Source: Diplonema papillatum
Lineage: Eukaryota > Euglenozoa > Diplonemea > Diplonemida > Diplonemidae
Length of the DNA: 64,000 nt
NCBI GenBank assembly: GCA_030068145.1
Contig: JAPJBO010000318.1
Location: 1 to 64,000 of the forward strand
Direction of reading: 5' to 3'
Part shown: piece after piece, positions 1 through 55,582 of the stretch
How the letters are laid out: each line of letters opens with the position of its first letter
Numbering within the stretch: position 1 is the stretch's first letter
Position numbers and translations under genes: made by a program
Notes under the pieces: generated by a model
What the model was told of the DNA's origin: nothing
The model's database searches: none
The model's input: only the letters and a program-made list of their open reading frames with translations

Positions 1-105
1 TGTTCACTCGCCGTTACTAGGAGCATCGCTGAAGCTTTCTTTTCCTGCGCTGAGTGATATGCTTAAGTCAGTTAGCGCGTAGATCTTCAACAGCTGAGGT
101 CGGTG
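1..105 (-). pseudogene. 28S rRNA 5'-end fragment (copy 1)
   Basis: Read on the minus strand this is the start of large-subunit rRNA: GACCTCAG, then CTTAAGCATATCACTCAGCG, the GGAAAAGAAA stretch and TAACGGCGAGTGAACA, all universal eukaryotic landmarks. The rRNA-like sequence stops at base 105, exactly where the copy at 44,160-44,429 stops, close to the expected mature 28S 5' end. No ITS2-like sequence follows. The window edge cuts the other side, so its full length is unknown. Because the identity ends at a rRNA terminus and not in a spacer, I read it as an inserted fragment and not part of an rDNA unit. Confidence 0.85.
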
Positions 106-11384: not shown

Positions 11385-11579
11385 TGCTACCCGCGGCTCC
11401 TGATTTCTTCCAGGCCTTCTTGCATGTTGTGCCTGCAATGAAGTGTCAGCATGGAACTGTTACGAACAAGAGGAATCCAACTGGTTAATTAAACCACAGC
11501 ATTTCGCTTCATCACAGCGGTGACGAGTGGAATGTGACTTCTGTCCAGTGCCCTGAATGTCAACGCTGAGAGATCAGGT

Positions 11580-11639
<60 letters not shown>

Positions 11640-11762
11640 TTCTAATTAAAGACGCGCATGAATGGACCAATGAGATTCCTTCTGTCCCTACCTACTATCT
11701 GGCGAAACAGCAGAAGCCAAAACGGCCCAAGAAGGAGTGCGCCGCGAAAGCGAGAAGATGAC
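11385..11762 (+). pseudogene. 28S rRNA internal fragment (copy A)
   Basis: From 11,577 the sequence contains the most conserved large-subunit core: AAGCGCGGGTAAACGGCGGG, GTAACTATGACTCTCTTAAG, GTAGCCAAATGCCTCGTC, then GACGCGCATGAATGGA and ACTATCTGGCGAAAC. Similarity runs on to about AGAAGATGACC (11,762) and then stops. The upstream part (11,385-11,520) matches the second copy at 47,274-47,583 base for base over long stretches, so it belongs to the same rRNA. It is an isolated piece with no neighbouring rDNA. Confidence 0.88.
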
Positions 11763-29845: not shown

Positions 29846-29955
29846 GAAGCCGGTCCGCCCCCTGCTGGTAGACTGCTGGTAGACTGCTGGTATTTTGTGA
29901 CAGACAGCAGCAGGCGATTCGATGCATTTCCAGGAAATAGGGGTGGACTGGCTCA
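29846..29955. mobile_element. Short MITE of the 50-kb transposon family (copy a)
   Basis: Left end GAAGCCGGTCCGCCCC, about 3 decamer-like units (CTGGTAGACTG), then ATTCGATGCATTTCCAGG and right end GGGTGGACTGGCTCA. It lies in a unit of the 29.6-31.2 kb array. Confidence 0.7.
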
Positions 29956-30379: not shown

Positions 30380-30509
30380 TGAGCCGGTCCACCCTGCTGG
30401 TAGACTGCTGGTAGACCGCTGGTAGACTGCTGGTAGACTGCTGGTATACTGTGATAGACAGCAGCAGGCAATTCGATGCATTTCCAGGAAATAGGGGTGA
30501 ACTGGCTCA
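30380..30509. mobile_element. Short MITE of the 50-kb transposon family (copy b)
   Basis: Left end TGAGCCGGTCCACCC, about six decamers (TAGACTGCTG/TGTGATAGAC), the GCAGCAGGCAATTCGATGCA block, and right end GGGGTGAACTGGCTCA. It is the same insertion as copies a and c, amplified with the array. Confidence 0.75.
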
Positions 30510-30797: not shown

Positions 30798-30875
30798 TGA
30801 GCCGGCCCACCCCCTGCTGGTAGACTGCAGCAGGCAATTCGATGCATTTCCAGGAAATAGGGGTGAACTGGCTCA
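30798..30875. mobile_element. Short MITE of the 50-kb transposon family (copy c)
   Basis: The minimal version at 78 bp: TGAGCCGGCCCACCCC, a single TAGACTG unit, the GCAGCAGGCAATTCGATGCA block, and right end GGGGTGAACTGGCTCA. Confidence 0.75.
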
Positions 30876-34230: not shown

Positions 34231-35044
34231 ATTCCGGTCCTTCAGACACTGCGGCTGAGCCTACTGCGCCCTGTGCCTGCAGGGCAGCACAAGCGGACCA
34301 GGCGGAGGCAGCGGGCTGTGTGTTGTGCAGTGGTCGGTGATTCTTCGCTTGAGAGTCCAGGATTTTAGAGTCTCCAGGCGACCTTCGTCGAATGGGATGT
34401 CAGTTTTCGACTAATCTTCTAGTATCTTCGGTCTCTACCATTATCCCAGAGTTTTTACGCCCAAAAATGGAAATCCAATAATAGGAGACACCGGGGACAT
34501 ACCGTAAGGACGCCTGTCCTGCCGGGGTTCACCTTCAAGCTCTGTCGAGTGGCTTGTGTCGAACTCGTCTAACGAGCACACGGAATGCTCCAGTTGCCTG
34601 CTTGTTTTTTTTTTAGTTTTTTAGAGTGAAAGTTCGCTTTTGAAACTCTGAGGTTTTAAAGTCTCCGGGTGATCTTCGTCAATACGGGAAGATATCCGTT
34701 GTGCTCTTGGGTGTACTTACGAGTGGGTATTTACACGAGGTAAAAGAATCGGTGTGTACCGTTGTAGGTGGTTTCGGCCATTGTTTCGCCCTCTTTGTGG
34801 TTCAGACGGTCGGCGACCGTACAGTCTCCGGTTGATCGCAGGATGCTTGGGGTGATATAGAGAAACAACTGTTCCCCTCGGCTCAACTGCGGTTGATCGA
34901 GGGTGACATCAATTGCACTTATCGGTGGCTCTGGGAACGATGAAGACCGCGGCCAGACGCGATAGTCAATGGGAATTGCAGAAGCATGAGACTCATCATC
35001 AGGTCGTCGAACGCATTAGCGGGCTGGGTTCAAAAAAGAGAGGA
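34231..35044. other. No gene recognised
   Basis: Contains two copies of the TTTTAGRGTCTCCGG dispersed motif (34,344-34,385 and 34,620-34,675) and a poly-T run at 34,605. Nothing else is supported. Confidence 0.35.
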
Positions 35045-37772: not shown

Positions 37773-38055
37773 TGAGCCGGTCCAGGCCCTGCTGATGGAC
37801 TGCCTGATAGCCTGTGCTAGCCTATGATAGCCAGCGATAGACTGTGATAGACTGCCTGATGGACTGTGGTGGACTGCCTGATTGACTATGCTAGCCAGTG
37901 ATAGCCTACGATAGCCTACGTTAGGCTGCCTGATAGACTGTGATATCTATGCAAGCCCGAGATAGCCTATGATAGCCTGCCTGATAGCCGGTGATAGACA
38001 GCAGCAGGCAATTTGAAATTCGATGCAGTTCGAGGAAATAGGGCGGACTGGCTCA
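37773..38055. mobile_element. MITE of the 50-kb transposon family, with 5-bp target duplication
   Basis: Left end TGAGCCGGTCC, right end GGGCGGACTGGCTCA, flanked on both sides by GTGTT (37,768-37,772 and 38,056-38,060). The interior is a diverged decamer array (GATAGCCTGC, GATAGACTGT and similar, about 20 units) followed by the GCAGCAGGCAATT...ATTCGATGCA block. It has no coding capacity. It sits immediately 5' of the RING-H2 start codon, so it could affect that gene's promoter or 5' UTR. Confidence 0.8.
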
Positions 38056-38060
38056 GTGTT

Positions 38061-39075
38061 GTCGGGTGATGACCGCTTGCGCTGAACTCAAGCTCGTCGA
38101 GACAGTCCGCCACAGGCAGATTGGAAGGGGTTATGCAGCTGCGCTGCCTTCGACGTCAAGCTTCGACGCAAAACTGTGGCCGACCGTCACGTTTCCGGCT
38201 TTTTTCCCTTTCTAGAGCAAAGGCGGGGGGTTGGGACGGGGTTTGTTTCCTTTTCTTCTGCCTTCTCCAAGGCTGTACTCTTTCTTCAAAAAAGAAACTG
38301 CTTTTATCAGAGATTTCTGAATATGCTCGTGTTGAGATTTGAGGGATCGGGATTCTGTGCTTTCGCTCAACCTCGCGTTTATTTTATACCTCGTGCTTTA
38401 TTTTCTTGTATCTCGCCCGCGCAAGCCTCCGCGTCCAGTCAGGTGGTGGGCTCACCCACACACACACAAACAGGGTGGAGCACACAGGTGTGGCGCGCGT
38501 AAAAAAAAAGTGTAGAATGTGTGCGTGTGTTGTGTTTTCTTGCTGTTTCTTCGATCCGTAGGATACACCGGATGGGGTGTTCTCGAAGACCTTCGGGGTT
38601 GTTCGGAAGGTGAAAGAGAGAGAGAGGGATTCTGAACGACAACTTACACAAGCACAACAGCAAGTGTACTCGGCGCAGTGCACCACTGCTTCTGCCGTGT
38701 CATCCGGGTTTGCGGTGGTTGCTTCCTTCTGCATCTTCGCGGGTTTGTTTATGCGCGCGCGTGTAGTTCCTATGTAATACGTGTAACGTGACACGCTGCC
38801 AACCGATTCTTTTTGATGATGACAAACGCGTTTTGTGCATGAAAACTTAGCACGGCGCTTTCTTTTGCTTGTGCGCAGTGGCGGAACTCATCTGCCTTGA
38901 TAAGTTTCATGTAGTACGCTGCCACCTACTACCGTATTTCTAAAACTGTTGCCCGGAAATAAACCCGGTTTACCAGGTTTCTTTCCGGCCAGCAGATTTC
39001 CCCCTACCCTCAACCAACCACCCCACCCCGCACATGTGTGTGGTTCGACGTTGGGTCACCTTTTCCAAGATGACC
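38061..39075. other. No gene recognised; one dispersed repeat
   Basis: 38,857-38,935 matches the CTTTGGTAAGTTTCATG repeat found at 57,222 and 63,684-63,925 (TTTGTGCGCAGT, GCGGAACTCA, TCATGTAGTACGCTGCCA). Otherwise nothing is supported. Confidence 0.35.
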
Positions 39076-39384
39076 TTAGCCAACAGTTCCCGCACCCTCG
39101 GGCAGGTGGTGACGTGGGCGTCGTACGGCGCATGCGGTACTTGTCCTTGTCAGTACAGATATTGCTTTTGTACAGCCCAAGCAGGAAACGGAGGCCACTT
39201 CCCCGGTTTTCTCGACTTTGAACCCTTTGGCAAGGGTGTGTTCGATGAGCTTCTTGATCATGATGCTGACACTGTCATCCCCCTTCCCGGGCTTGCGTGA
39301 AACCTCGACTTCGACTACAAGCTGCTTGCAGTTCTCGAGGCGCATACTCCGCAGGTCGCCGTAAGCGAGCACAGTCGTAGTCAA
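39076..39384 (-). CDS. Hypothetical protein fragment
   Basis: A 102-codon frame with a plausible mixed composition (DLRSMRLENCKQLVVEVEVS, then SIMIKKLIEHTLAKGFKVEK). A second frame just beyond it (VTTCPRVRELLAKVILEKV) could be its continuation after a frameshift or intron. No family recognised. It may be a single exon. Confidence 0.3.
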   Translation of the reverse strand: MTTTVLAYGDLRSMRLENCKQLVVEVEVSRKPGKGDDSVSIMIKKLIEHTLAKGFKVEKTGEVASVSCLGCTKAISVLTRTSTACAVRRPRHHLPEGAGTVG

Positions 39385-40389
39385 GTTGCTTATTTCTGCC
39401 TAAGATGAGCCTCGGTCCCACGCCTTCTGTACTTTTGCAGAGAAGGCACTTCTGACCAAATACTTCTCCTTCATCATTCCATGGGTTAAATTGCAGTGTG
39501 TTTTTCTGACCCTTTCATCGTTCCATGGTTTTGTACGTGTCAGTTCCTCGTTTTCCGTTGACTTATGTCTGTCGCATGCCTGTGTCGTCGTCATCCAGCC
39601 ACTTCGTCCCTGCGTAGGCCATGGAGACCTGGAAGGCCTTGCGGTTGCCTGTCTGTCGCTTTACCAACCAATGCATTGTTAAACACGAAAAAAAAAAACG
39701 GAAGGAGAACGGGTCTCAGGGAGGAAGTCGTCTAACGGCAGCATGTTGAGCGCCGCCACAGCCAGGACTCGGCGGAGCGGGGGTTCTACTCGATACGCGA
39801 TTGACAACTTGAAATGGTGGACGAGCTTGTGGCGCAGATTGCGAGGGGAGCAAAAGCAGCGAGCGTGTGTCTTCGGTTTGTGCCGGGTTTCTTGCCAGGT
39901 TTCCAAAGTCCAAGTAGTAGTAGCAGTTTGAGCTTGATATGCAGCAACAATCTGTGACGATGGAATGCACAAGCCGCTGCAGACTACCTCTTTGCACGCG
40001 TCGTGTCATGCCTCGGTTGCTTCTTGCCCCGCGTACTTTTTGTTTCCGGTGCGCGCTTCACGTCCGCTGTGGTGTCTGACAAGCCCGAGGAATCACCAGA
40101 CGATGCGGCGCATTTCCTTTCCTCCTTTCGCAGGTTGTCCCCGCGGCCGCGATCTCGACTCCTCTATGTTCCTTGCCTTAGCCTGCTCGTCTTCACGGCT
40201 CCGCTTCGGTTGAGTTCGTGGGCTGTCAACCTTAGTAGTATGTGTCGTTCTAGTCCAGAGCAAGTCTGGAAGAGAACGGAGCAATCGTTACACACAAACA
40301 AGCGACTTTAGGTAGCCGCCTGGGCGGCGCCGATCCGAGCGCACAGCGTTCCAGGTGGCCACCTCCGTCACTCGGCTTGCAGTAAAGAC
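39385..40389. other. No gene; dispersed AACAATCTGTGACGATGGAA block
   Basis: 39,930-39,990 repeats sequence seen at 36,205-36,250. Its upstream part (TTTGARCTTGRTATGCAGCA) is also seen near 430. Nothing else is supported. Confidence 0.35.
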
Positions 40390-43303: not shown

Positions 43304-44690
43304 AGTGCTGCAGGAACTCACACCACGCGCCGTCGCAGGGAGTCTCGCGGAACGGACCTTCCTGCGTATTCGCCGGAATAAAGCGAACGGCGTCTCGTCG
43401 AGCAAAGGTGGCACGAAGCTGCAACGGGGTGTTCGCAGAGCTCGTAGCGACGCCCGGGCTGCGGAAAGTGAAGCAGGTCTTCTTCGTGTGTTGCTGGAAG
43501 GCGGCATTTGCCAGGTGGTGATCTTCTCCACGACGTCTTCACCAGGCTCAAGCGCTGGTTGATATCGGCGGCAACGACGGACGGCTGGAAAAGCTGCCCC
43601 GAGCATCGGCGGTAACGACCTTCTCCTTGACCTCCGTGCACGGCGCGTCTACTTCGAGGAGGGGATAAGCCGGAAATCCGTCATGCGCGGTCTCCAACAG
43701 TTGACAAGAAGCGGCAGATGCCGGCACCAACACCGCCATCGAGAACGTAGAAGGCGACAACGACCTTTTGACGTGGCGTGGCGTGTTGCTGGAAGGCGGC
43801 ATTTGCCAGGTGGTGATCTTCTCCACGACATCTTTACCAGGCTCAAGCGCTGGTTTGATATCGGCGGCAACGACGGACGGCTGGAAAAGCTGCCCCGAGC
43901 AGGTGAGGCTCGGCAACGACCTTCACCTCCGTGCACGGCGCGTCTACTTCGAGAAGGGGATAAGCCGGAAGTCCGCCATGCGCGGTCTCCAACAGTTGAC
44001 AAGAAGCGGCGGATGCCGGCACCAACACCGCCATCGAGAACGTAGAAGGCGACAACACCGTCGTCAGGGACCTTTTGACGTAGCGTGGCGTGTTGCTGGA
44101 AGGCGGCATTTGCCAGGTGGTGATCTTCTCCACGAGGTCTTTACCAGGCTCAAGCGCTGCAAGCAAGGAGTTAACCAACATGGCTCGTCGAGGAAATACG
44201 GGACTCTCACCCTCTGTGGATACCCCATTCCAGGAGACTTACCTCGACGCCAGTTGTGTCCCCAAGCAGCTTGCGCCACATTCCGGATATCCGTAGAACA
44301 CCGGTTCAGGCTTGGGCTCTGCCCTGTTCACTCGCCGTTACTAGGAGCATCGCTGTTGCTTTCTTTTCCTGCGCTGAGTGATATGCTTAAGTCAGTTAGC
44401 GCGTAGATCTTCAACAGCTGAGGTCGGTGGTTGATATCGGCGGCAACGACGGGCGGCTGGAAAAGCTGCCCCGAGCAGGTGAGGCTCGGCAACGACATTC
44501 TCCTTGACCTCCGTGCACAGCACGTCTACGTCGAGGGGATAAGCCGGAAATCCCGTCATGCGAGGTTTTCAACAGTTGACAAGAAGCGGCGGATGCCGGC
44601 ACCGACACCGCCATCGAGAACGTAGAAGGCGAGAACACCAGCGGACGGCCGCTGGCAACGAGCAAGCGGCGGCGGAAAGACTCGGCATCA
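43304..44690. repeat. About 305-bp tandem repeat, interrupted by 28S sequence
   Basis: Units begin TTGCTGGAAGGCGGCATTTG and run through CTCAAGCGCTGGTTGATATC, GGCTGGAAAAGCTGCCCCGA, CTCCGTGCACGGCGCGTCTA and CAACACCGCCATCGAGAACG. Starts lie near 43,488, 43,788 and 44,092; the last unit resumes at 44,430 after a 270-bp insertion. The tail motif is shared with the Cys-rich gene at 59,380-59,420, so the array grew from that gene. Frames within are not conserved. Confidence 0.8.
44160..44429 (-). pseudogene. 28S rRNA 5'-end fragment (copy 2), inserted in tandem repeat
   Basis: On the minus strand: CACCGACCTCAG at the very start, then CTTAAGCATATCACTCAGCG, TAGTAACGGCGAGTGAACAG, GGCAGAGCCCAAG and GAGGGTGAGAGTCCCGTATT, i.e. 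the 5' domain of 28S. It lies between GCGCTG and GTTGATATC, which are joined directly in the two preceding repeat units. About 270 nt of 28S are present, starting at the same base as the copy at 1-105. Confidence 0.92.
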
Positions 44691-47260: not shown

Positions 47261-47318
47261 TAGGCGGGGGGGGCAGAAGGAATCTCATTGGTCCATTCAT
47301 GCGCGTCTTTACATACAA

Positions 47319-47351
<33 letters not shown>

Positions 47352-47585
47352 TAGCTACTCCCTCCGCTCCGTATACCCGTGCTTGACCTGATCTCTCAGC
47401 GTTGGCATTCACCTGGCATTGGGCAGAAGTCACACTCCACTCGCCGCTGTGATGTAGCGAAATGCTGTGGTTTAATTAACCAGTTGGATTCCTCTTGTTC
47501 GTAACAGTTCCAAGCTGACACTTCATTGCGGGCACAACATGCAAGACGGCCTGGAAGAAAACAGGAGCCGCGGGTAGCACCCGGG
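47261..47585 (-). pseudogene. 28S rRNA internal fragment (copy B), inserted
   Basis: The minus strand matches copy A at 11,385-11,690: GGGTGCTACCCGCGGCTCCT, GAGAGATCAGGTCAAGC, GACTCTCTTAAGGTAGCCAA, ATGCCTCGTC and GACGCGCATGAATGGACC. It is more degenerate; GGTAAACGGCGGGAGTAAC reads GGTATACGGAGCGGAGGGAG here. It ends at GATTCCTTCTG followed by a run of eight C (minus strand). It splits a repeat that is intact at 46,751-46,770. Confidence 0.9.
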
Positions 47586-47790
47586 GATTGGATAGGAAGC
47601 TTTACTGTATCGAGCTAGACGTTAACTCATGCTTGAGCCAGGGATGCCCACTCCGCAGCCTTTCCGCTGGGCTTTGGTAGCTGATCCGCTTGCGTACACT
47701 TTTCACTACAGTGGCGTTGCGCGCTAAGTCGTCCATAATTTTCCAGTACGCCACGTTGCATTATTTTCGTTTTCATCACGCGATAGACTC
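47586..47790. repeat. Direct repeat arm 2 (right side of the 28S insertion)
   Basis: Continuation of the tandem duplication; see 46,758-46,965. Confidence 0.8.
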
Positions 47791-49716: not shown

Positions 49717-50173
49717 TGTCGGGGTTAGCGGTGAAATGACTTATTAGTGGGTAGAATGGTGTGTGGGCCTTTGAAGCGTGGATGATGCCTCTCGCGCTGC
49801 TCCCCTTGAGGTTCCTGGCTCATGCCAAAGCGCCGCCGCCCGGGTTAAGGGGTTGCGGCATCAGGCGTGGGCCAGGGCCAGGGAGGTTGTTCGGAGGGGT
49901 CACCACCCACCGTTCGCGGGCTTCGTTACTTCACTGCCCCTTAGTGGGTGAACAAATCGCCTGAGACCATTCTGCTTGTCTAGGTTAGGCAGACGGGAAC
50001 GCAGTGGCAGCACCACGGCACTGTCCGATCGACTTATAGCGCGGAAGAGCGAGCCAATAGCAGATCTGCGATGCTCCTAAACGTCCTAGGCTCCACGCGT
50101 ACTACACTGACGCATTAAACGAGTTTGAGAGCCTCCCGGCCCCTGTCTTGAAGAGGATGGGAAACCTTTCGAA
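49717..50173. other. Presumed intron or flank; nothing recognised
   Basis: No coding, RNA or repeat feature is supported. Confidence 0.3.
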
Positions 50174-50202
50174 CTTACGTGAGCCGGTCCACCCCATCCT
50201 GA

Positions 50203-50396
50203 TGGCCTGTAATAGACTGTGATAGACTGTGATAGACTGTGATAGACTGTGATAGACTGTGATAGACTGTGATAGACTGTGATAGACTGTGATAGACTGT
50301 GATAGACTGTGATAGACTGTGATAGACTGTGATAGACTGTGATAGACTGTGATAGACTGTGATAGACTGTGGTAGACTGTGATAGACTGTGATAGA
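50203..50396. repeat. Decamer array (TGTGATAGAC)n, left end of transposon
   Basis: About 19 units, near-perfect, starting about 10 bp inside the left terminal repeat. Both strands are open through it, which is an artefact. Confidence 0.95.
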
Positions 50397-50465
50397 CCAC
50401 TGGGTGATATTCGATGACATAATGTACTATATTTGTGGGTATTGTAGTTTGTTTTGTGCGCAGCC

Positions 50466-50930
50466 ATGAGACTGGTGCAGGAAGAGGTCTCACCCGAAGC
50501 GACGAGAGAGTTTGTGTTGGGCAGGCTTCACGTTGACTGCAAGTTCCGGCCAGCGAACGAGTCCGAACCCGAACCAGAGCCAAAGCATGTCCGGCACACC
50601 ATAAGTTTTTTGGCAGTAGATGACTCACGGTACTCATCCCCTTCATTTGTGAATATCCTGTCTGTTGTTCACCGGTTGTTTCTTGTGAAGAGGCTGGTGC
50701 GAAATGGGGCAAGGCAACCCATGGGAGAGACCTACGGCGACCCTAGATCAAGAAGAACTCACGAACGAGTGCAATGCCAGAGGAAGCTAGCTGCCCAATT
50801 CCGGAAGATCGCAGCCCTGATAATTGTCTATACCGCAGACGTTTGCTGTCCTGTGCTTGGCCCACATATTCTCGGAGAATGCAGGGAATCTCGGCTGCAT
50901 GATGTCTCTTCGGACGCGCCGACCGAGTGA
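50466..50930 (+). CDS. Small hypothetical ORF inside the transposon
   Basis: Starts MRLVQEEVSPEATREFVLG and runs 155 codons with an EPEPEPK stretch. It lies within the 5.1-kb element, on the strand opposite the two larger genes. No family recognised; it may not be real. Confidence 0.25.
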   Translation: MRLVQEEVSPEATREFVLGRLHVDCKFRPANESEPEPEPKHVRHTISFLAVDDSRYSSPSFVNILSVVHRLFLVKRLVRNGARQPMGETYGDPRSRRTHERVQCQRKLAAQFRKIAALIIVYTADVCCPVLGPHILGECRESRLHDVSSDAPTE

Positions 50931-51395
50931 CATGTTTTCGTCAGTGGTTTTAGGCCAATTTACATATGACCAGCCATACTAACGCATCATGCGTCATCGT
51001 GACCAGGTTAAGAGGAGAAGCCAGAGAACAGAAGTCAACGCAGCGGACAGGGTGCAGAGACGGCTGGAAGTAGCACGTGAAGATCTCTGTCCGAAAGCCG
51101 GAAAGAACTGCGTATATATCACGTGGCAGATGCGAGAACATACTTTGCAGCAATGTGCAGTGCGTGGCAACGCAGAACTGGGAGAAGTCGCTGATTCGAC
51201 AACTCCTGAACGAAAGAAAAGATCCGGACCGGTAGATATCCTACCCGACAGTGAATCGGAACTCCCCTATCGTGTGGTCGTGGAAACAAACTCTGTGCAT
51301 GAATCAGGAGGAAGAATGGAGCATCGATTTGGTATCGGAAAAAGGTACGGTGGGAGGCGGACCCAGATGGCAAACCGAGAGACGGATCAAGAACA

Positions 51396-52334
51396 TCACA
51401 GCAAAGAGTACTTCGTCTTCTTCGCGGGCGGAAGCGAGGGCTCAGGGGTCGCAGGAACAGGGGCGGGGACAGTACTTGAAGAATCAGAGGCCGCATCGGC
51501 TCCCACAGCATCGGGAGTTGCAAACTGAACTGTGGAAGCGATAGCCCGCATCGGCTCCCACAGTTCAGCGATCGTTCTCTGTCCCTGCGTACTCACCTCC
51601 TGGGCCTTCGCATCGGAGCGCGTTTCCTGCATGTTTTTTTGAGCCTTGCGCAGGTGCCTGACTCGTTTCTCCCGCATGCCGTTGAGCACGTCTTCCTTGA
51701 CGTGTTGTTGGGCGTCCGTGCACTCGACGACGTGCTTTTCGTACGGCGCCAGACGAAAACGCTGGCGGTCCGTCGGCAGCAGCGTAAAAACTGTACTGGA
51801 GCACCCAGCACACTTTACCACCGCTTTCTCGGCGACCCGCGACGTCGTAAACGCCTCTTCGCAGCCTATCGTGGCCAGCCTCGCCTTCAGGGTAGCCGCC
51901 ATGTCACCGGTCTTGACCTTCGGTGGCTCCGGTGCATCCACTGTGCAAACAATCGGTTTGCACCCCAGCCCACGCATGGCCTCAATGTCTTGAGGCGTGG
52001 TGATGCTTCGTAGGCGATCGTCGTCGTCGTCGACTTCCGTCCCCTTCGCCACCTTGTACTGGAGCTTTACAAGCTTCGACAGCGGCAACTTTCGCGGGGT
52101 ACCCAGGCGCTCGCGCACCTCCGCTTCTGCTTTCTGTAGCGCCGCTGCCTTTATGGCACCCAGCCCGTCTGCTTGCAGGACAAAATGGAACCGATTGGCT
52201 CCTTCTTCTTTCTTCTGAGCTTTCCATAGGGCGCGCGCCCTCTCTCCCCAGCAGACGCACACTGTGAAGGAAAACGCCGCAAAAGACATTGGTAGAAAGA
52301 CGGGTGCTGGTAGTTCGGGATGGAAACCTGTCAT
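51396..52334 (-). CDS. Transposon-borne protein with C2HC-like finger
   Basis: 312 codons. After a hydrophobic N-terminal stretch (FAAFSFTVCVCW), it is Ala/Lys-rich, with a run of five Asp (VDDDDDRL). The section AVVKCAGCSSTVF...YEKHVVEC gives C-x2-C...H-x3-C, a possible zinc site. The C-terminus is Ser/Pro-rich and ends PPAKKTKYSLL, a basic patch like a nuclear signal. It lies 0.4 kb downstream of the 707-aa gene, same strand, within the same terminal repeats. Inferred role: DNA-binding accessory protein of the element. If the real start is a later Met (for example MAATLKARLATIG), the N-terminal hydrophobic part is not translated. Confidence 0.5.
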   Translation of the reverse strand: MTGFHPELPAPVFLPMSFAAFSFTVCVCWGERARALWKAQKKEEGANRFHFVLQADGLGAIKAAALQKAEAEVRERLGTPRKLPLSKLVKLQYKVAKGTEVDDDDDRLRSITTPQDIEAMRGLGCKPIVCTVDAPEPPKVKTGDMAATLKARLATIGCEEAFTTSRVAEKAVVKCAGCSSTVFTLLPTDRQRFRLAPYEKHVVECTDAQQHVKEDVLNGMREKRVRHLRKAQKNMQETRSDAKAQEVSTQGQRTIAELWEPMRAIASTVQFATPDAVGADAASDSSSTVPAPVPATPEPSLPPAKKTKYSLL

Positions 52335-52726
52335 TGTGATGGGCAGCTATCGATTGCGAAAGTGGTCGGAAGCGGCCTGGCCGAATAAGACGCACACCTC
52401 AAGAGTCTAACAGACAGGGAGTATGAAGTTGTCTCACAACTGCCCACAGGCCAGGTCAAAGCCCAGAATGCAAACAAACGGAATCAGAAGGGTAAGCTGC
52501 GGTCAAAAGAAATGGCTAAAGGATGTGATGTGGACAAGGATTTAGTAGCAAGACCCATGATTAACTCTCATCTAGACATCCTTGCTAGATTTTTGTCGCT
52601 TCGATGGCAAAGTAGAGAAAGAGGAGCTCAGTTTTCCCTTCGCGGTTTTGACAGGCAATGAGGCGGCAGGAGAGCTCGCTTCTTGTTTTTCGTTTGCAGT
52701 CTGGGAGGTGACGATGAAGACGATGT

Positions 52727-54850
52727 TCAAGATGAAGACGTTGAAGACGTTGAAGATGAAGATGAGGACGCCTCGACCTGTTTCTTTCTCTTCTTCGTCG
52801 ATCGGACAGAAGGCTTCTGTTGTTGATTTGGCTCCGAGGGTTCGGCACACGCCTGGGCTGCTTTACCCCTGCGGGGATAGTCAGCAGGTATCGCGAAATC
52901 CGCTTTGTCGAATGCAATAATGCTTTCGAGAAGCTCTCTCATCTTCCCCGTTCTACCGAGGCCCCGCTTCCGGCATTGGTCCTCGAGACATGCTCGTGAG
53001 TTGTTGTCGACGATATCGGATGGGGACAGCTCTTTGATGGCAGCACGAGCTTCGTTCTCTGCGAGCACTTTTTTGTTTCGTTTCTTGACGAGTGCTTCTC
53101 CTGCTGCCTGCTTACGAAGCGTGTTCTCTTCGTACTCGTCAGCGAGCCGATGCGACCTTGAGACAGTGGTCTCCCAGTTCAGGTAAGTTTCCTTGCAATA
53201 GGCAAGGACTTTCTCATTTCCGAGCAGTTCGGATGACACTGCTGGAAGGTTCCCTGAACGGAACATGGCAACTGCGCGGAGTACATCGTCAGTTACCCCG
53301 ACGCCACGACAATCCTCGATCACTGCTTTGGCAATGCCGACAGGTTTCTCGGTCATGTTGGCATTGCAGCCTGGAGGGGCGTGGGCGTCGCTGACTGCGT
53401 TGACGTACTTTTCCACCTCCAAGCACTTGAACGAGCGGATGTGCTTTACGATTACCTCGTCGAAACGCACTCCCTCCTCCGTCCCTGGATCTTCCAGTTC
53501 GAGCTCGTTCGGCAACGGGTTGCTGGAGAGGGACTTGACGGCGGCCTTCAGTTGATCGGCATACGAGGTCGGCCCGCATTCGCGATCTCGACCAAGCTTG
53601 TTACCATCGGCGGCAAGATGCCCAAACTTGAGTGTTGTGGGCGGGGAACTGCCTTCAACCAGCTTCAGGTTATCGGGCACGCTGCAGCCGAACAAATCTT
53701 TTCTCCCTTCGAAGGCAAGAGCACGGAGAGGCGGGTTGGTCAGGTTGTGACATAGACACGCGATGATTCCGATCCAAGCCTCCTTGACCGACCCCAGCTC
53801 AGATAATTGCCAGAGAAGCTGGCTGAGAGGATAGGTCAATGCTGTGAACACCCTGCGCAGCATGCGGAGCTTGTCGCAGAAGCTGGGGTTGCCAAGGGCG
53901 ATGAATAGCTTGTGCCACTTGTTCGGCACTTTAGTCTTCGCACCGGGAGCACTCGAGTAGAGCACATTATCGCGCTGTTCCAAATACAGTTGCAACCAAC
54001 CGGCCACGATCTTGCCCTGAACCGTGTGTGTCAGGCTGTACGCACCGGCTGTCAACGAACAAAAGCGGCCGGACTTCACGGGAACCCAGAACATGCCAGC
54101 CGGCGAAAGTCCGGTGGTTTGGGTAAACCAGTGCGCGAAGGGATCATTGCCAGCTATAAACTGGTATGCCAGCGGAATCAGCACTTTCAGCGGGAGCTGG
54201 TCGGAGGACAGCTGGTCTAGCATGCTGCTGTCGGCGAGATGCTGTCTGTGGACAGGCTCCATGATGACCTCATCAACGAACTGTGCACTGTAGAGGTCGG
54301 TGCACACACCGAACATCGCTCGGTCGGTCACTACCTTCTTCAATCGTGGCATAAAAGCCTCGTCGCAGACTTGGAAGCCAAGTTCAAGCAACTTATCATT
54401 TAGCTCCGTGAAGTACTTCGAGGTGCGCTCGATATGGCGTACCACCGCGTCGTTCGTCTTCACGATGACAAGCGCAGCTAAGGCGGCATGCCTCCTCCAT
54501 ACTGCTTCGACTGAGTCGAAGTAAGTAAAGGATAGCGTGAGCACGTCCTTGTTGCGGCCAGGCAAGTCGCCCGCGTCCCCAGACAGACAGATGTCTCCAG
54601 TATTGAGACGCAGCAGAAACTCCATGTCCTGCAAGATCATGCTCAGTCCAAGAGCACGTCGTACGGCGCGTCGACTTACGTCATTCCTCAAGTCCAGATT
54701 TGGAAACGGGCGCAAGATGATGTGCGTGGTTTCCTTGATGAGGGTCGGGATCCTTGACAGCGGAACCCGAGCTACGACGAACGCAAGGACGAGCTCACGT
54801 AGTGAAGTGGAAACCTCCTCTTCTGCACCTGAACCAGTGCTTCCCGACAT
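52727..54850 (-). CDS. SAP-domain protein, transposase candidate
   Basis: 707 codons, one exon, starting MSGSTGSGAEEEV about 420 bp inside the right terminus. The body (about 1-560) is a globular region without a signature I can name. It has isolated acidic motifs (LSGDAGDLPGRN near 86, VCTDLYSAQF near 180) that could be part of an RNase H-like catalytic site, but this is unproven. At about 630-655, ACLEDQCRKRGLGRTGKMRE matches the SAP helix-hairpin-helix that binds AT-rich DNA. The tail is basic then Ser-rich (TKKRKKQVEASSSSSS). As the only large protein between matching terminal repeats it is the natural transposase candidate. Confidence 0.65.
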   Translation of the reverse strand: MSGSTGSGAEEEVSTSLRELVLAFVVARVPLSRIPTLIKETTHIILRPFPNLDLRNDVSRRAVRRALGLSMILQDMEFLLRLNTGDICLSGDAGDLPGRNKDVLTLSFTYFDSVEAVWRRHAALAALVIVKTNDAVVRHIERTSKYFTELNDKLLELGFQVCDEAFMPRLKKVVTDRAMFGVCTDLYSAQFVDEVIMEPVHRQHLADSSMLDQLSSDQLPLKVLIPLAYQFIAGNDPFAHWFTQTTGLSPAGMFWVPVKSGRFCSLTAGAYSLTHTVQGKIVAGWLQLYLEQRDNVLYSSAPGAKTKVPNKWHKLFIALGNPSFCDKLRMLRRVFTALTYPLSQLLWQLSELGSVKEAWIGIIACLCHNLTNPPLRALAFEGRKDLFGCSVPDNLKLVEGSSPPTTLKFGHLAADGNKLGRDRECGPTSYADQLKAAVKSLSSNPLPNELELEDPGTEEGVRFDEVIVKHIRSFKCLEVEKYVNAVSDAHAPPGCNANMTEKPVGIAKAVIEDCRGVGVTDDVLRAVAMFRSGNLPAVSSELLGNEKVLAYCKETYLNWETTVSRSHRLADEYEENTLRKQAAGEALVKKRNKKVLAENEARAAIKELSPSDIVDNNSRACLEDQCRKRGLGRTGKMRELLESIIAFDKADFAIPADYPRRGKAAQACAEPSEPNQQQKPSVRSTKKRKKQVEASSSSSSTSSTSSS

Positions 54851-55106
54851 TTGGATTATTTTATTATGCGTGGAGGAGAAACCCTACGAAGGGGCAGAGC
54901 TTCCAATACACAAACCGAACCCGGGTGATCGTAAGCTCATGTGGTGGGCTGAATTAGTTTGAGCTAAAAAACAGAGAATCGAAGGCGAGAACCTGCGTCG
55001 CCGACGCAACGGTTACCTCTTCGAACGTGAACTATCGTGCGTTCGCTTTTTCAGCTCGCCTTGATCGTCGCGTTCAGGCGCGCTTGGCCGCCCCAGTCCA
55101 CAAGCC

Positions 55107-55247
55107 CTGTGATAGACTGTGATAGACTGTGATAGACTGCGATAGACTGCGATAGACTGTGATAGACTGTGATAGACTGTGATAGACTGTGATAGACTGT
55201 GATAGACTGTGATAGACTGTGATAGACTGTGATAGACTGTGATAGAC
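55107..55247. repeat. Decamer array (TGTGATAGAC)n, right end of transposon
   Basis: 14 units, two with a CGATAGACTG variant, lying about 25 bp inside the right terminal repeat. Confidence 0.95.
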
Positions 55248-55582
55248 AGAAGAATGCACTTCGATGGGGGAGGGGTGGACCGGCTCACTTACGCCGTGAT
55301 GGGGGTCGACGATTGCAAGTATTCTCCTTGAACAAGGAATTTCGCGCAAGTCAACAGCTTGCACGGATTGCGTCCCTGCCATTTGTGCACACCACGTTGC
55401 TGCACCAACCGTGGATAGATACCAGGACTAGAAATGGGAGATTTCATACCGCGAGCCAGCTGGTGATTACTTGCGAGTCGGTAATCTTGTGCCGCGCTCC
55501 AATCTGGGTGCTCATCTTGATCGAAACATCGGGTACTGCGTGGGTGTGGGTTGTGTGCCTACTGTGCCTTGTCTGCCTTCAG

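What the first reader, a model, noticed from the sequence alone, without database searches (positions are those of the whole stretch)
50174..55293. A complete 5.1-kb DNA transposon of uncertain, possibly new, superfamily
Seen: 17-bp perfect terminal inverted repeats, an exact 6-bp flanking duplication (CTTACG), a decamer array just inside each end, and two genes reading inward from the right end. The large protein has a C-terminal SAP domain and no transposase signature I know. Superfamilies with 5-6 bp target duplications (Transib, IS3EU, Dada, Polinton) have different proteins or sizes. The chance of matching ends, matching flanks and a derived family is very small.
Basis: partly seen in the sequence, partly recalled or inferred. 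Interest (0 to 1): 0.9.

Follow-up and report, generated by a model that had tools for sequence, protein, structure and literature searches.

The report
Two-gene DNA transposon, possibly new superfamily
This is a complete "jumping gene" of an unnamed eukaryote whose two proteins resemble no transposase family we could search, so it may found a new superfamily; in nearly all places examined, a second kind of jumping gene of the same genome sits in the repeat arrays at the ends of its sister family.

Summary
The element spans 50180-55287, with 16-bp perfect terminal inverted repeats, CTTACG on both sides, two decamer arrays and two same-strand genes (707 and 312 aa). The genome holds 5,846 copies of the terminal repeat against 336 for the control. 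Other copies examined end at the predicted bases, and the window's insertion has uninterrupted empty sites elsewhere. A sister family (4.25 kb in L042, near-identical copies) has different ends but homologs of both genes in the same order (46% and 27% identity; pairs within 1 kb in 41 of 43 copies). Target duplications are mostly 5 bp in both. No Pfam, NCBIfam or solved-structure transposase matches either protein; SAP is weak. Two aspartates kept in both families and a following ExxH fit the RNase H-like (DDE) layout of the hAT/MuDR/P/Kolobok/Dada group. Best reading: an autonomous cut-and-paste transposon, possibly a new superfamily, with a transposase plus a zinc-finger-like partner. Side finding: a LINE that lies in the sister family's decamer arrays in 29 of 30 places scored, of 466.

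The parts
50174..50179 (.). left copy of target-site duplication (CTTACG; commonest length in the family is 5 bp)
   Evidence: empty sites
50180..50195 (+). left terminal inverted repeat TGAGCCGGTCCACCCC
50207..50397 (+). left subterminal array of the decamer TGATAGACTG, 19 units
51396..52334 (-). gene 2: 312-aa protein with C-x2-C...H-x3-C and other residues shared with the sister family; proposed DNA-binding partner
52727..54850 (-). gene 1: 707-aa protein, proposed transposase (D92, D176, ExxH 198-201 kept in the sister family; SAP-like stretch near residues 620-648)
54954..55083 (.). stretch upstream of gene 1 similar to sequence elsewhere in the window and genome; by eye like the 3' tail of a LINE; present in other copies of this family
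55107..55247 (+). right subterminal decamer array, 14 units, same strand as the left array
55272..55287 (-). right terminal inverted repeat
55288..55293 (.). right copy of target-site duplication

Best explanation
An autonomous, terminal-inverted-repeat, cut-and-paste DNA transposon. Shown: exact ends, short target duplications, empty sites, two conserved genes, thousands of copies of the ends, and a sister family of near-identical copies. Inferred: the 707-aa protein is the transposase, with an RNase H-like DDE core (D92, D176, the ExxH strand, then a helical insertion and a last acid, perhaps E501 or E572), which cuts the two ends and joins them to target strands staggered by 5 bp. Also inferred: the 312-aa partner and/or the transposase binds the direct decamer arrays, one site per helical turn, and because the arrays run in the same direction at both ends they give the two ends different identities.
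For: Ends: the other copies read stop at the same terminal bases. TSD, family A: of 15 long copies with both ends, 8 have an exact flush 5-bp duplication, 2 have 6 bp (window included), 3 have a duplication only if one or two extra bases at the left end are allowed, 2 have none. TSD, sister family B: 9 of 11 flush 5 bp, and L041 and L042 too, so 11 of 13; the other two fit 5 bp plus carried-over bases. Empty sites: 6 of 13 B sites tested have a like uninterrupted sequence in held loci (L042, L063, L081 exact; L045 one mismatch; L041 and L069 three); all six lie in repeated sequence. The window insertion has 40 like places over its joined flanks (junction read). Genes: homologs in the same order and strand, 46% and 27% identity; 41 of 43 B copies carry a gene-2 homolog within 1 kb; in gene 1 third codon positions differ at 0.66 against 0.34 at second positions. 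Integrity and recent activity: none of the 43 listed B matches has a stop inside, and 38 of 43 span query residues 7-700; B coding DNA is 99.4-100% identical over the aligned pieces of the five copies compared with L041.
Against: No catalytic fold was shown: structure prediction was off, and no profile match to any transposase was found. Only two diverged protein subfamilies were aligned, so kept residues are many and the last acid cannot be picked. Resemblance between the two families' decamers is 7 of 10, which 8.7% of shuffles reach. Some copies lack an exact duplication: L033 and L037; short derivatives L010, L019, L021, both pairs in L035, and three further short pairs in the window itself (29846, 30380, 30798). 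Fits with extra bases were sought at several offsets, so they are weaker than flush ones. Gene-2 binding to the arrays is not shown.
Confidence: 0.77

Rival explanations
1. It is a very diverged member of a known superfamily, most likely of the hAT/MuDR/P/Kolobok/Dada group (second D followed by C/DxxH) or, by duplication length, Transib, and only sequence divergence hides it.
For: Second aspartate in VVTDR followed by E198-P-V-H201 resembles the C/DxxH motif reported for those five superfamilies (passages of PMC9587614, and PMC3706591). 5-bp duplications are called typical of Transib (passage of PMC4411706). Carry-over of flanking sequence is also described for Dada (passage of PMC8869645). 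Some hAT groups are recalled to make 5-bp duplications.
Against: No match of either subfamily's protein to a Pfam transposase family, of the window protein to NCBIfam, nor of their profile to any solved transposase. Dada: 6-7-bp duplications, RNA-gene targets, and no terminal inverted repeats in Dada-U6 and Dada-U1. Transib, hAT and MuDR termini do not resemble TGAGCC (recalled).
Confidence: 0.35
2. The two genes are passengers, and the ends are moved in trans by an unrelated transposase encoded elsewhere in the genome.
For: No catalytic motif is proven for gene 1. Short derivatives without a gene have the same ends and duplications, so movement in trans does occur.
Against: Both genes are kept as a pair across two families with different end sequences. 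None of the 43 listed B matches to gene 1 has a stop inside, and 38 of 43 span query residues 7-700.
Confidence: 0.08
3. Not a mobile element: a segmental duplication or chance combination of repeats.
For: None found beyond the window's richness in repeats.
Against: Thousands of copies of the ends, exact boundaries, duplications and empty sites.
Confidence: 0.01

Closest known systems
hAT / MuDR / P / Kolobok / Dada group of DDE transposons
   Same: a second D followed by an acidic/Cys-xx-His motif (here ExxH); DNA transposons with duplicated targets
   Different: no sequence match to any family model; two-gene layout; ends TGAGCC; 5-bp duplications (unlike Kolobok TTAA and Dada 6-7 bp; lengths of the others recalled)
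Transib / RAG1-RAG2-type transposons
   Same: 5-bp target duplications; two-gene versions exist
   Different: ends do not resemble the RSS-like heptamer (heptamer recalled); no RAG1 match in Pfam or PDB searches; genes tandem on one strand
Dada
   Same: DDE with DxxH; reported carry-over of flanking sequence on movement
   Different: 6-7-bp duplications, RNA-gene targets and no terminal inverted repeats in Dada-U6/U1
EnSpm/CACTA
   Same: arrays of short subterminal repeats and a second protein that binds them (recalled)
   Different: ends are not CACTA; 5-bp instead of 2-4-bp duplications (recalled); no family match
Tx1L LINE inserted in the Tx1D DNA transposon of Xenopus (recalled)
   Same: precedent for a LINE whose target lies inside a DNA transposon
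   Different: here the target is the decamer array at the transposon's ends; different host and elements

Membership tests
cut-and-paste TIR DNA transposon (general) | inverted terminal repeats, short target duplication of constant length, empty sites, exact copy boundaries | tested here: met
   (exceptions on the duplication told in the Against line)
cut-and-paste TIR DNA transposon (general) | RNase H-like DDE/D catalytic domain | not testable with these tools
   structure prediction off; only a motif-level reading
Transib | 5-bp target duplications | tested here: met
   definition from a passage
Transib | termini similar to the RSS heptamer (heptamer letters recalled, not from a call) | tested here: not met
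   ends TGAGCCGG and TGAGCCAA
Transib | RAG1-core-like transposase | tested here: not met
   no RAG1 match among Pfam or PDB results; a fold comparison was not possible
hAT | duplication length (8 bp, 5-6 in some groups) and YARNG-type ends (both recalled) | tested here: inconclusive
   5 bp would fit only some groups; TGAGC ends do not fit
hAT | hAT family domains | tested here: not met
   no Pfam match up to E 10
Dada | 6-7-bp duplications and insertion in multicopy RNA genes | tested here: not met
   duplication mostly 5 bp, 6 bp in 2 of 15 A copies; flanks judged by eye only, not searched for RNA genes; definition from passages
MuDR, P, Kolobok | duplication length (8-10 and 7-8 recalled; TTAA for Kolobok) and family domains | tested here: not met
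C/DxxH group of DDE transposases | C/DxxH between second D and last E | tested here: inconclusive
   ExxH present after D176; fold untested
Polinton | large element with DNA polymerase B and integrase | tested here: not met
   5.1 kb; no such Pfam match in the four frames scanned
IS3EU, Ginger, KDZ, Sola, Academ, Novosib | family transposase sequences (Repbase) | not tested
   no library of these was at hand beyond what Pfam/NCBIfam hold

The most novel reading that the evidence does not exclude
A new superfamily of eukaryotic DNA transposons: two conserved genes, TGAGCC ends, 5-bp duplications and direct, helically phased decamer arrays that mark left and right ends. Its arrays have in turn become the private target of site-specific LINEs that ride on the transposon.
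Probability: 0.5. Interest if true: 0.78.

Novelty: new variant of a known kind. Interest (0 to 1): 0.64.

Why it matters
In the Repbase scheme 20 superfamilies encode the known eukaryotic DDE transposases (passage of PMC9587614), so another one, recently active and in many near-identical copies, would extend the map of how eukaryotic DNA moves and offer a new enzyme to test. The nested LINE looks like a natural case of one mobile element using another's end arrays as its target, and makes the decamer arrays testable as binding sites for two different machineries.

Tried and rejected
Plus-strand frames of 154 and 179 aa (50466-50930, 50989-51528): no Pfam match that means anything; the second changes frame in copy L031 (by eye); taken as chance frames. 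The 2.5-kb extra stretch in copy L031 was considered as a missing gene and rejected: its 815-aa frame gives no meaningful Pfam match, no reverse transcriptase either, but its C-terminal Cys/His pattern resembles by eye that of the LINE tail in L041, and it interrupts the array. Homology between the two families' decamers: 7 of 10, reached by 8.7% of shuffles, so not claimed. Relatives in viral contigs (two scans) and in bacterial/archaeal genomes: none. Solved-structure searches with the protein, its profile and the gene-2 profile: nothing meaningful. The idea that the L031-type LINE-like element is specific to the window family's array: rejected, since of 20 other 3' junctions none lies in that array; most are followed by GA-N6-GTG (GTG at that place in 15 of 20, GA in 17 of 20). 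Literature searches whose listings gave no description of this element; for LINEs aimed at DNA transposons. Papers: passages seen and part of one section; all others only in listings.

Rows set aside before counts: of 20 B copies whose flanks I fetched, 9 lacked one end in the fetched stretch; of 8 A copies fetched, one lacked an end (L150/L151) and one had no stretch at one side (C1215). The gene-1 search scored 63 of 778 candidates, so copy numbers are lower bounds; the gene-2 search scored 74 of 74. The 30 LINE loci are the first 30 listed of 466; the 20 L031-type junctions are 20 of 641. No shuffled control was run for the decamer score.
Full report
What is there. The element runs from 50180 to 55287 (5,108 bp). 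It has 16-bp perfect inverted ends, TGAGCCGGTCCACCCC, and is flanked by CTTACG on both sides. Just inside each end lies an array of the decamer TGATAGACTG (19 units left, 14 right, 98% matches). Both arrays are on the same strand, so the arrays are direct while the ends are inverted. Two frames on the minus strand read inward from the right end: 707 aa (52727-54850) and 312 aa (51396-52334).

Is it a family? The terminal 16-mer with at most two mismatches occurs 2963 times forward and 2883 reverse in the 271-Mb assembly; the reversed control pattern occurs 188 and 148 times. That far exceeds the gene copies found, so I infer that most are ends of short derivatives; one, 283 bp with duplication GTGTT, lies in this same window at 37773-38055. 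The 707-aa protein finds 68 matches with 63 of 778 candidates scored. Of these, 25 rows at 19 loci are of the window's family A (89-100% identity). The window copy is the only one of the 19 that matches residues 1-707 in one open frame; the others match in part, in two frames, or with a stop. Copies L031, L032, L034 and L037-L040 end at the same terminal bases as the window copy; in L033 the last base of one end differs.

A sister family. The same search shows 43 matches at 45-47% identity, most with near-identical scores; none has a stop inside, and 38 of 43 span query residues 7-700. Two were read in full (L041, L042). This family B is 4.25 kb in L042 (a LINE insertion lengthens L041), has ends TGAGCCAATTCACCTA (11 of 16 identical to A) and arrays of CTCGATTACR, again direct. 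It carries homologs of both genes in the same order and strand: 46% identity over 693 residues and 27% over 214. In 41 of the 43 B copies a gene-2 homolog lies within 1 kb downstream of gene 1 (gene-2 search, all 74 candidates scored); the two exceptions are C765 (none found) and C187 (4.5 kb away). B coding DNA is 99.4-100% identical over the aligned pieces of the five copies compared with L041, so B moved recently. Between A and B, gene 1 differs at 45%, 34% and 66% of first, second and third codon positions (dN 0.56, dS saturated); gene 2 gives dN 0.96 and dS 2.4. That is protein-coding constraint, strong in gene 1 and weaker in gene 2. The gene-2 search also shows more diverged matches (for example C680 at 48%, C498 at 27%), not read.

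Target duplications and empty sites. In B, 9 of 11 copies with both ends fetched have an exact flush 5-bp duplication, and so do L041 and L042. The other two fit 5 bp if one extra base at the right end, or five at the left, were carried over. In A, of 15 long copies with both ends, 8 are flush 5 bp, two are 6 bp (window CTTACG, L146 ATTACG), three have a duplication only if extra bases at the left end are allowed (L032 5 bp plus G, L039 7 bp plus G, L155 5 bp plus two bases), and two have none (L033, L037). Of nine short derivatives outside the tandem repeats, four have exact 5 bp (window 37773, L001, L007, L030) and five do not (L010, L019, L021 and two pairs in L035); three more short pairs in the window (29846, 30380, 30798) show none either. 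Empty sites: 6 of 13 B sites tested have a like uninterrupted sequence among held loci, three of them exact, all in repeated sequence. The window insertion sits in a dispersed repeat: the joined flanks match 40 places at 86% (40 of 667 candidates scored), and ten places read straight through the junction with two or three mismatches (one further place read). Since those places have G after CTTRC, the window's six bases may be a true 6-bp duplication or 5 bp plus a carried-over G.

What the proteins are. No Pfam family (asked up to E 10), no NCBIfam family (window proteins only) and no solved structure gives a transposase match for the proteins or their profiles. The A/B alignment (three sequences, two subfamilies) keeps GDAG (D92), KKVVTDR (D176) and DEVIMEPVHR (E198xxH201). 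My reading, by inspection only, is an RNase H-like layout: first strand ending in D92, a hairpin, a helix, a strand ending in D176, then a strand with ExxH. [quoted passage not shown] PMC3706591). The last acid could be E501 (NxNxTExPVG) or E572/E574; two subfamilies cannot decide. Gene 2 keeps C175, C178, H201 and C205 in a C-x2-C...H-x3-C pattern, which I take as a zinc-binding, probably DNA-binding fold (inference).

How it most likely works. Gene 1 product pairs the two ends, cuts them, and joins them to strands 5 bp apart; repair makes the 5-bp duplication. Occasional extra bases between the duplication and the left or right end suggest that the cut sometimes falls outside the end and carries flanking bases along; carry-over of flanking sequence is also described for Dada (passage of PMC8869645). 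Gene 2 product and/or the SAP-like tail bind the arrays, whose 10-bp period would put all sites on one face of the helix. The common direction of the arrays at both ends would tell left from right. Apart from the duplication itself these steps are inferred.

A LINE that lives in the arrays. Of the 22 B copies whose ends I read, six have LINE sequence directly inside a decamer array (L041 and copies on C86, C558, C112, C535, C792), and in three more (C418, C51, C191) the LINE's 3' tail lies where the left array should be, with the junction outside the fetched stretch (by inspection). The LINE's 3' end GATTCTTTGCATTCTAATCCAAAC occurs 466 times in the genome. In the first 30 places listed, the sequence right after it matches a pair of B decamers at 14 or more of 20 positions in 29, in fixed register: GATTAC, TACTAC or TATTAC in 27 of 30. 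A long copy (L121) has a reverse transcriptase (PF00078, E 7.7e-21) and is followed within the same array by the start of another copy. A second, LINE-like element, found in the A array of copy L031, has 641 copies of its 3' end and a looser target: 17 of 20 junctions start GA and 15 of 20 have GTG eight bases on, which is also the spacing of the A decamer. Its frame in L031 shows no reverse transcriptase, so calling it a LINE rests on resemblance by eye. The precedent I recall is Tx1L in the Tx1D transposon of Xenopus; my searches listed no paper describing the present case.

Membership and novelty. It behaves as a cut-and-paste inverted-repeat transposon in the features tested. It fails tested features of Transib (ends, protein), hAT (domains; ends by recall), Dada (duplication), MuDR/P/Kolobok (duplication, partly by recall; domains) and Polinton (size, genes). 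A distant place in the C/DxxH group is not excluded. Repbase was not available, and for comparison 51 DNA transposon families of the brown alga Ectocarpus are listed as unknown (table in PMC12477816), so an unnamed relative may already sit in such a list. I therefore call it a new variant of a known kind, with an even chance of being a new superfamily.

Noticed in passing
L091-L120, L121 (203-7563), L041 6709-7466; B copies on C86, C558, C112, C535, C792: A LINE with 466 exact copies of its 3' end lies in the decamer arrays of the sister transposon in fixed register (29 of the first 30 places by a decamer score): apparently a site-specific retrotransposon that uses another transposon's ends.
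   Followed up: partly
L031 349-2866; L122-L141: A second, LINE-like element (641 copies of its 3' end) ends before GA-N6-GTG motifs (GTG in 15 of 20), i.e. also at 10-bp-spaced sequence; one copy is in the array of the window's family.
   Followed up: partly
window 1-102, 11464-11680, 34914-35043, 44106-44415, 47270-47665: Scattered fragments of large-subunit and 5.8S ribosomal RNA in both orientations; an SSU-like stretch near 43.2 kb seen by eye.
   Followed up: no
window 39033-39649 (-): Decayed relative of gene 2 (tblastn E 4e-7 with the sister protein), with no gene-1 match beside it.
   Followed up: no
window 37773-38055, 30380-30509, 30798-30875, 29846-29955: Short derivatives with related inverted ends; the first has duplication GTGTT and degenerate decamers, the others no duplication.
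   Followed up: partly
L034, L087, L088: Internal segments of some copies lie inverted within the element.
   Followed up: no
window 50080-50178 and 55293-55400: The window insertion lies in a dispersed repeat with at least 40 uninterrupted relatives.
   Followed up: yes
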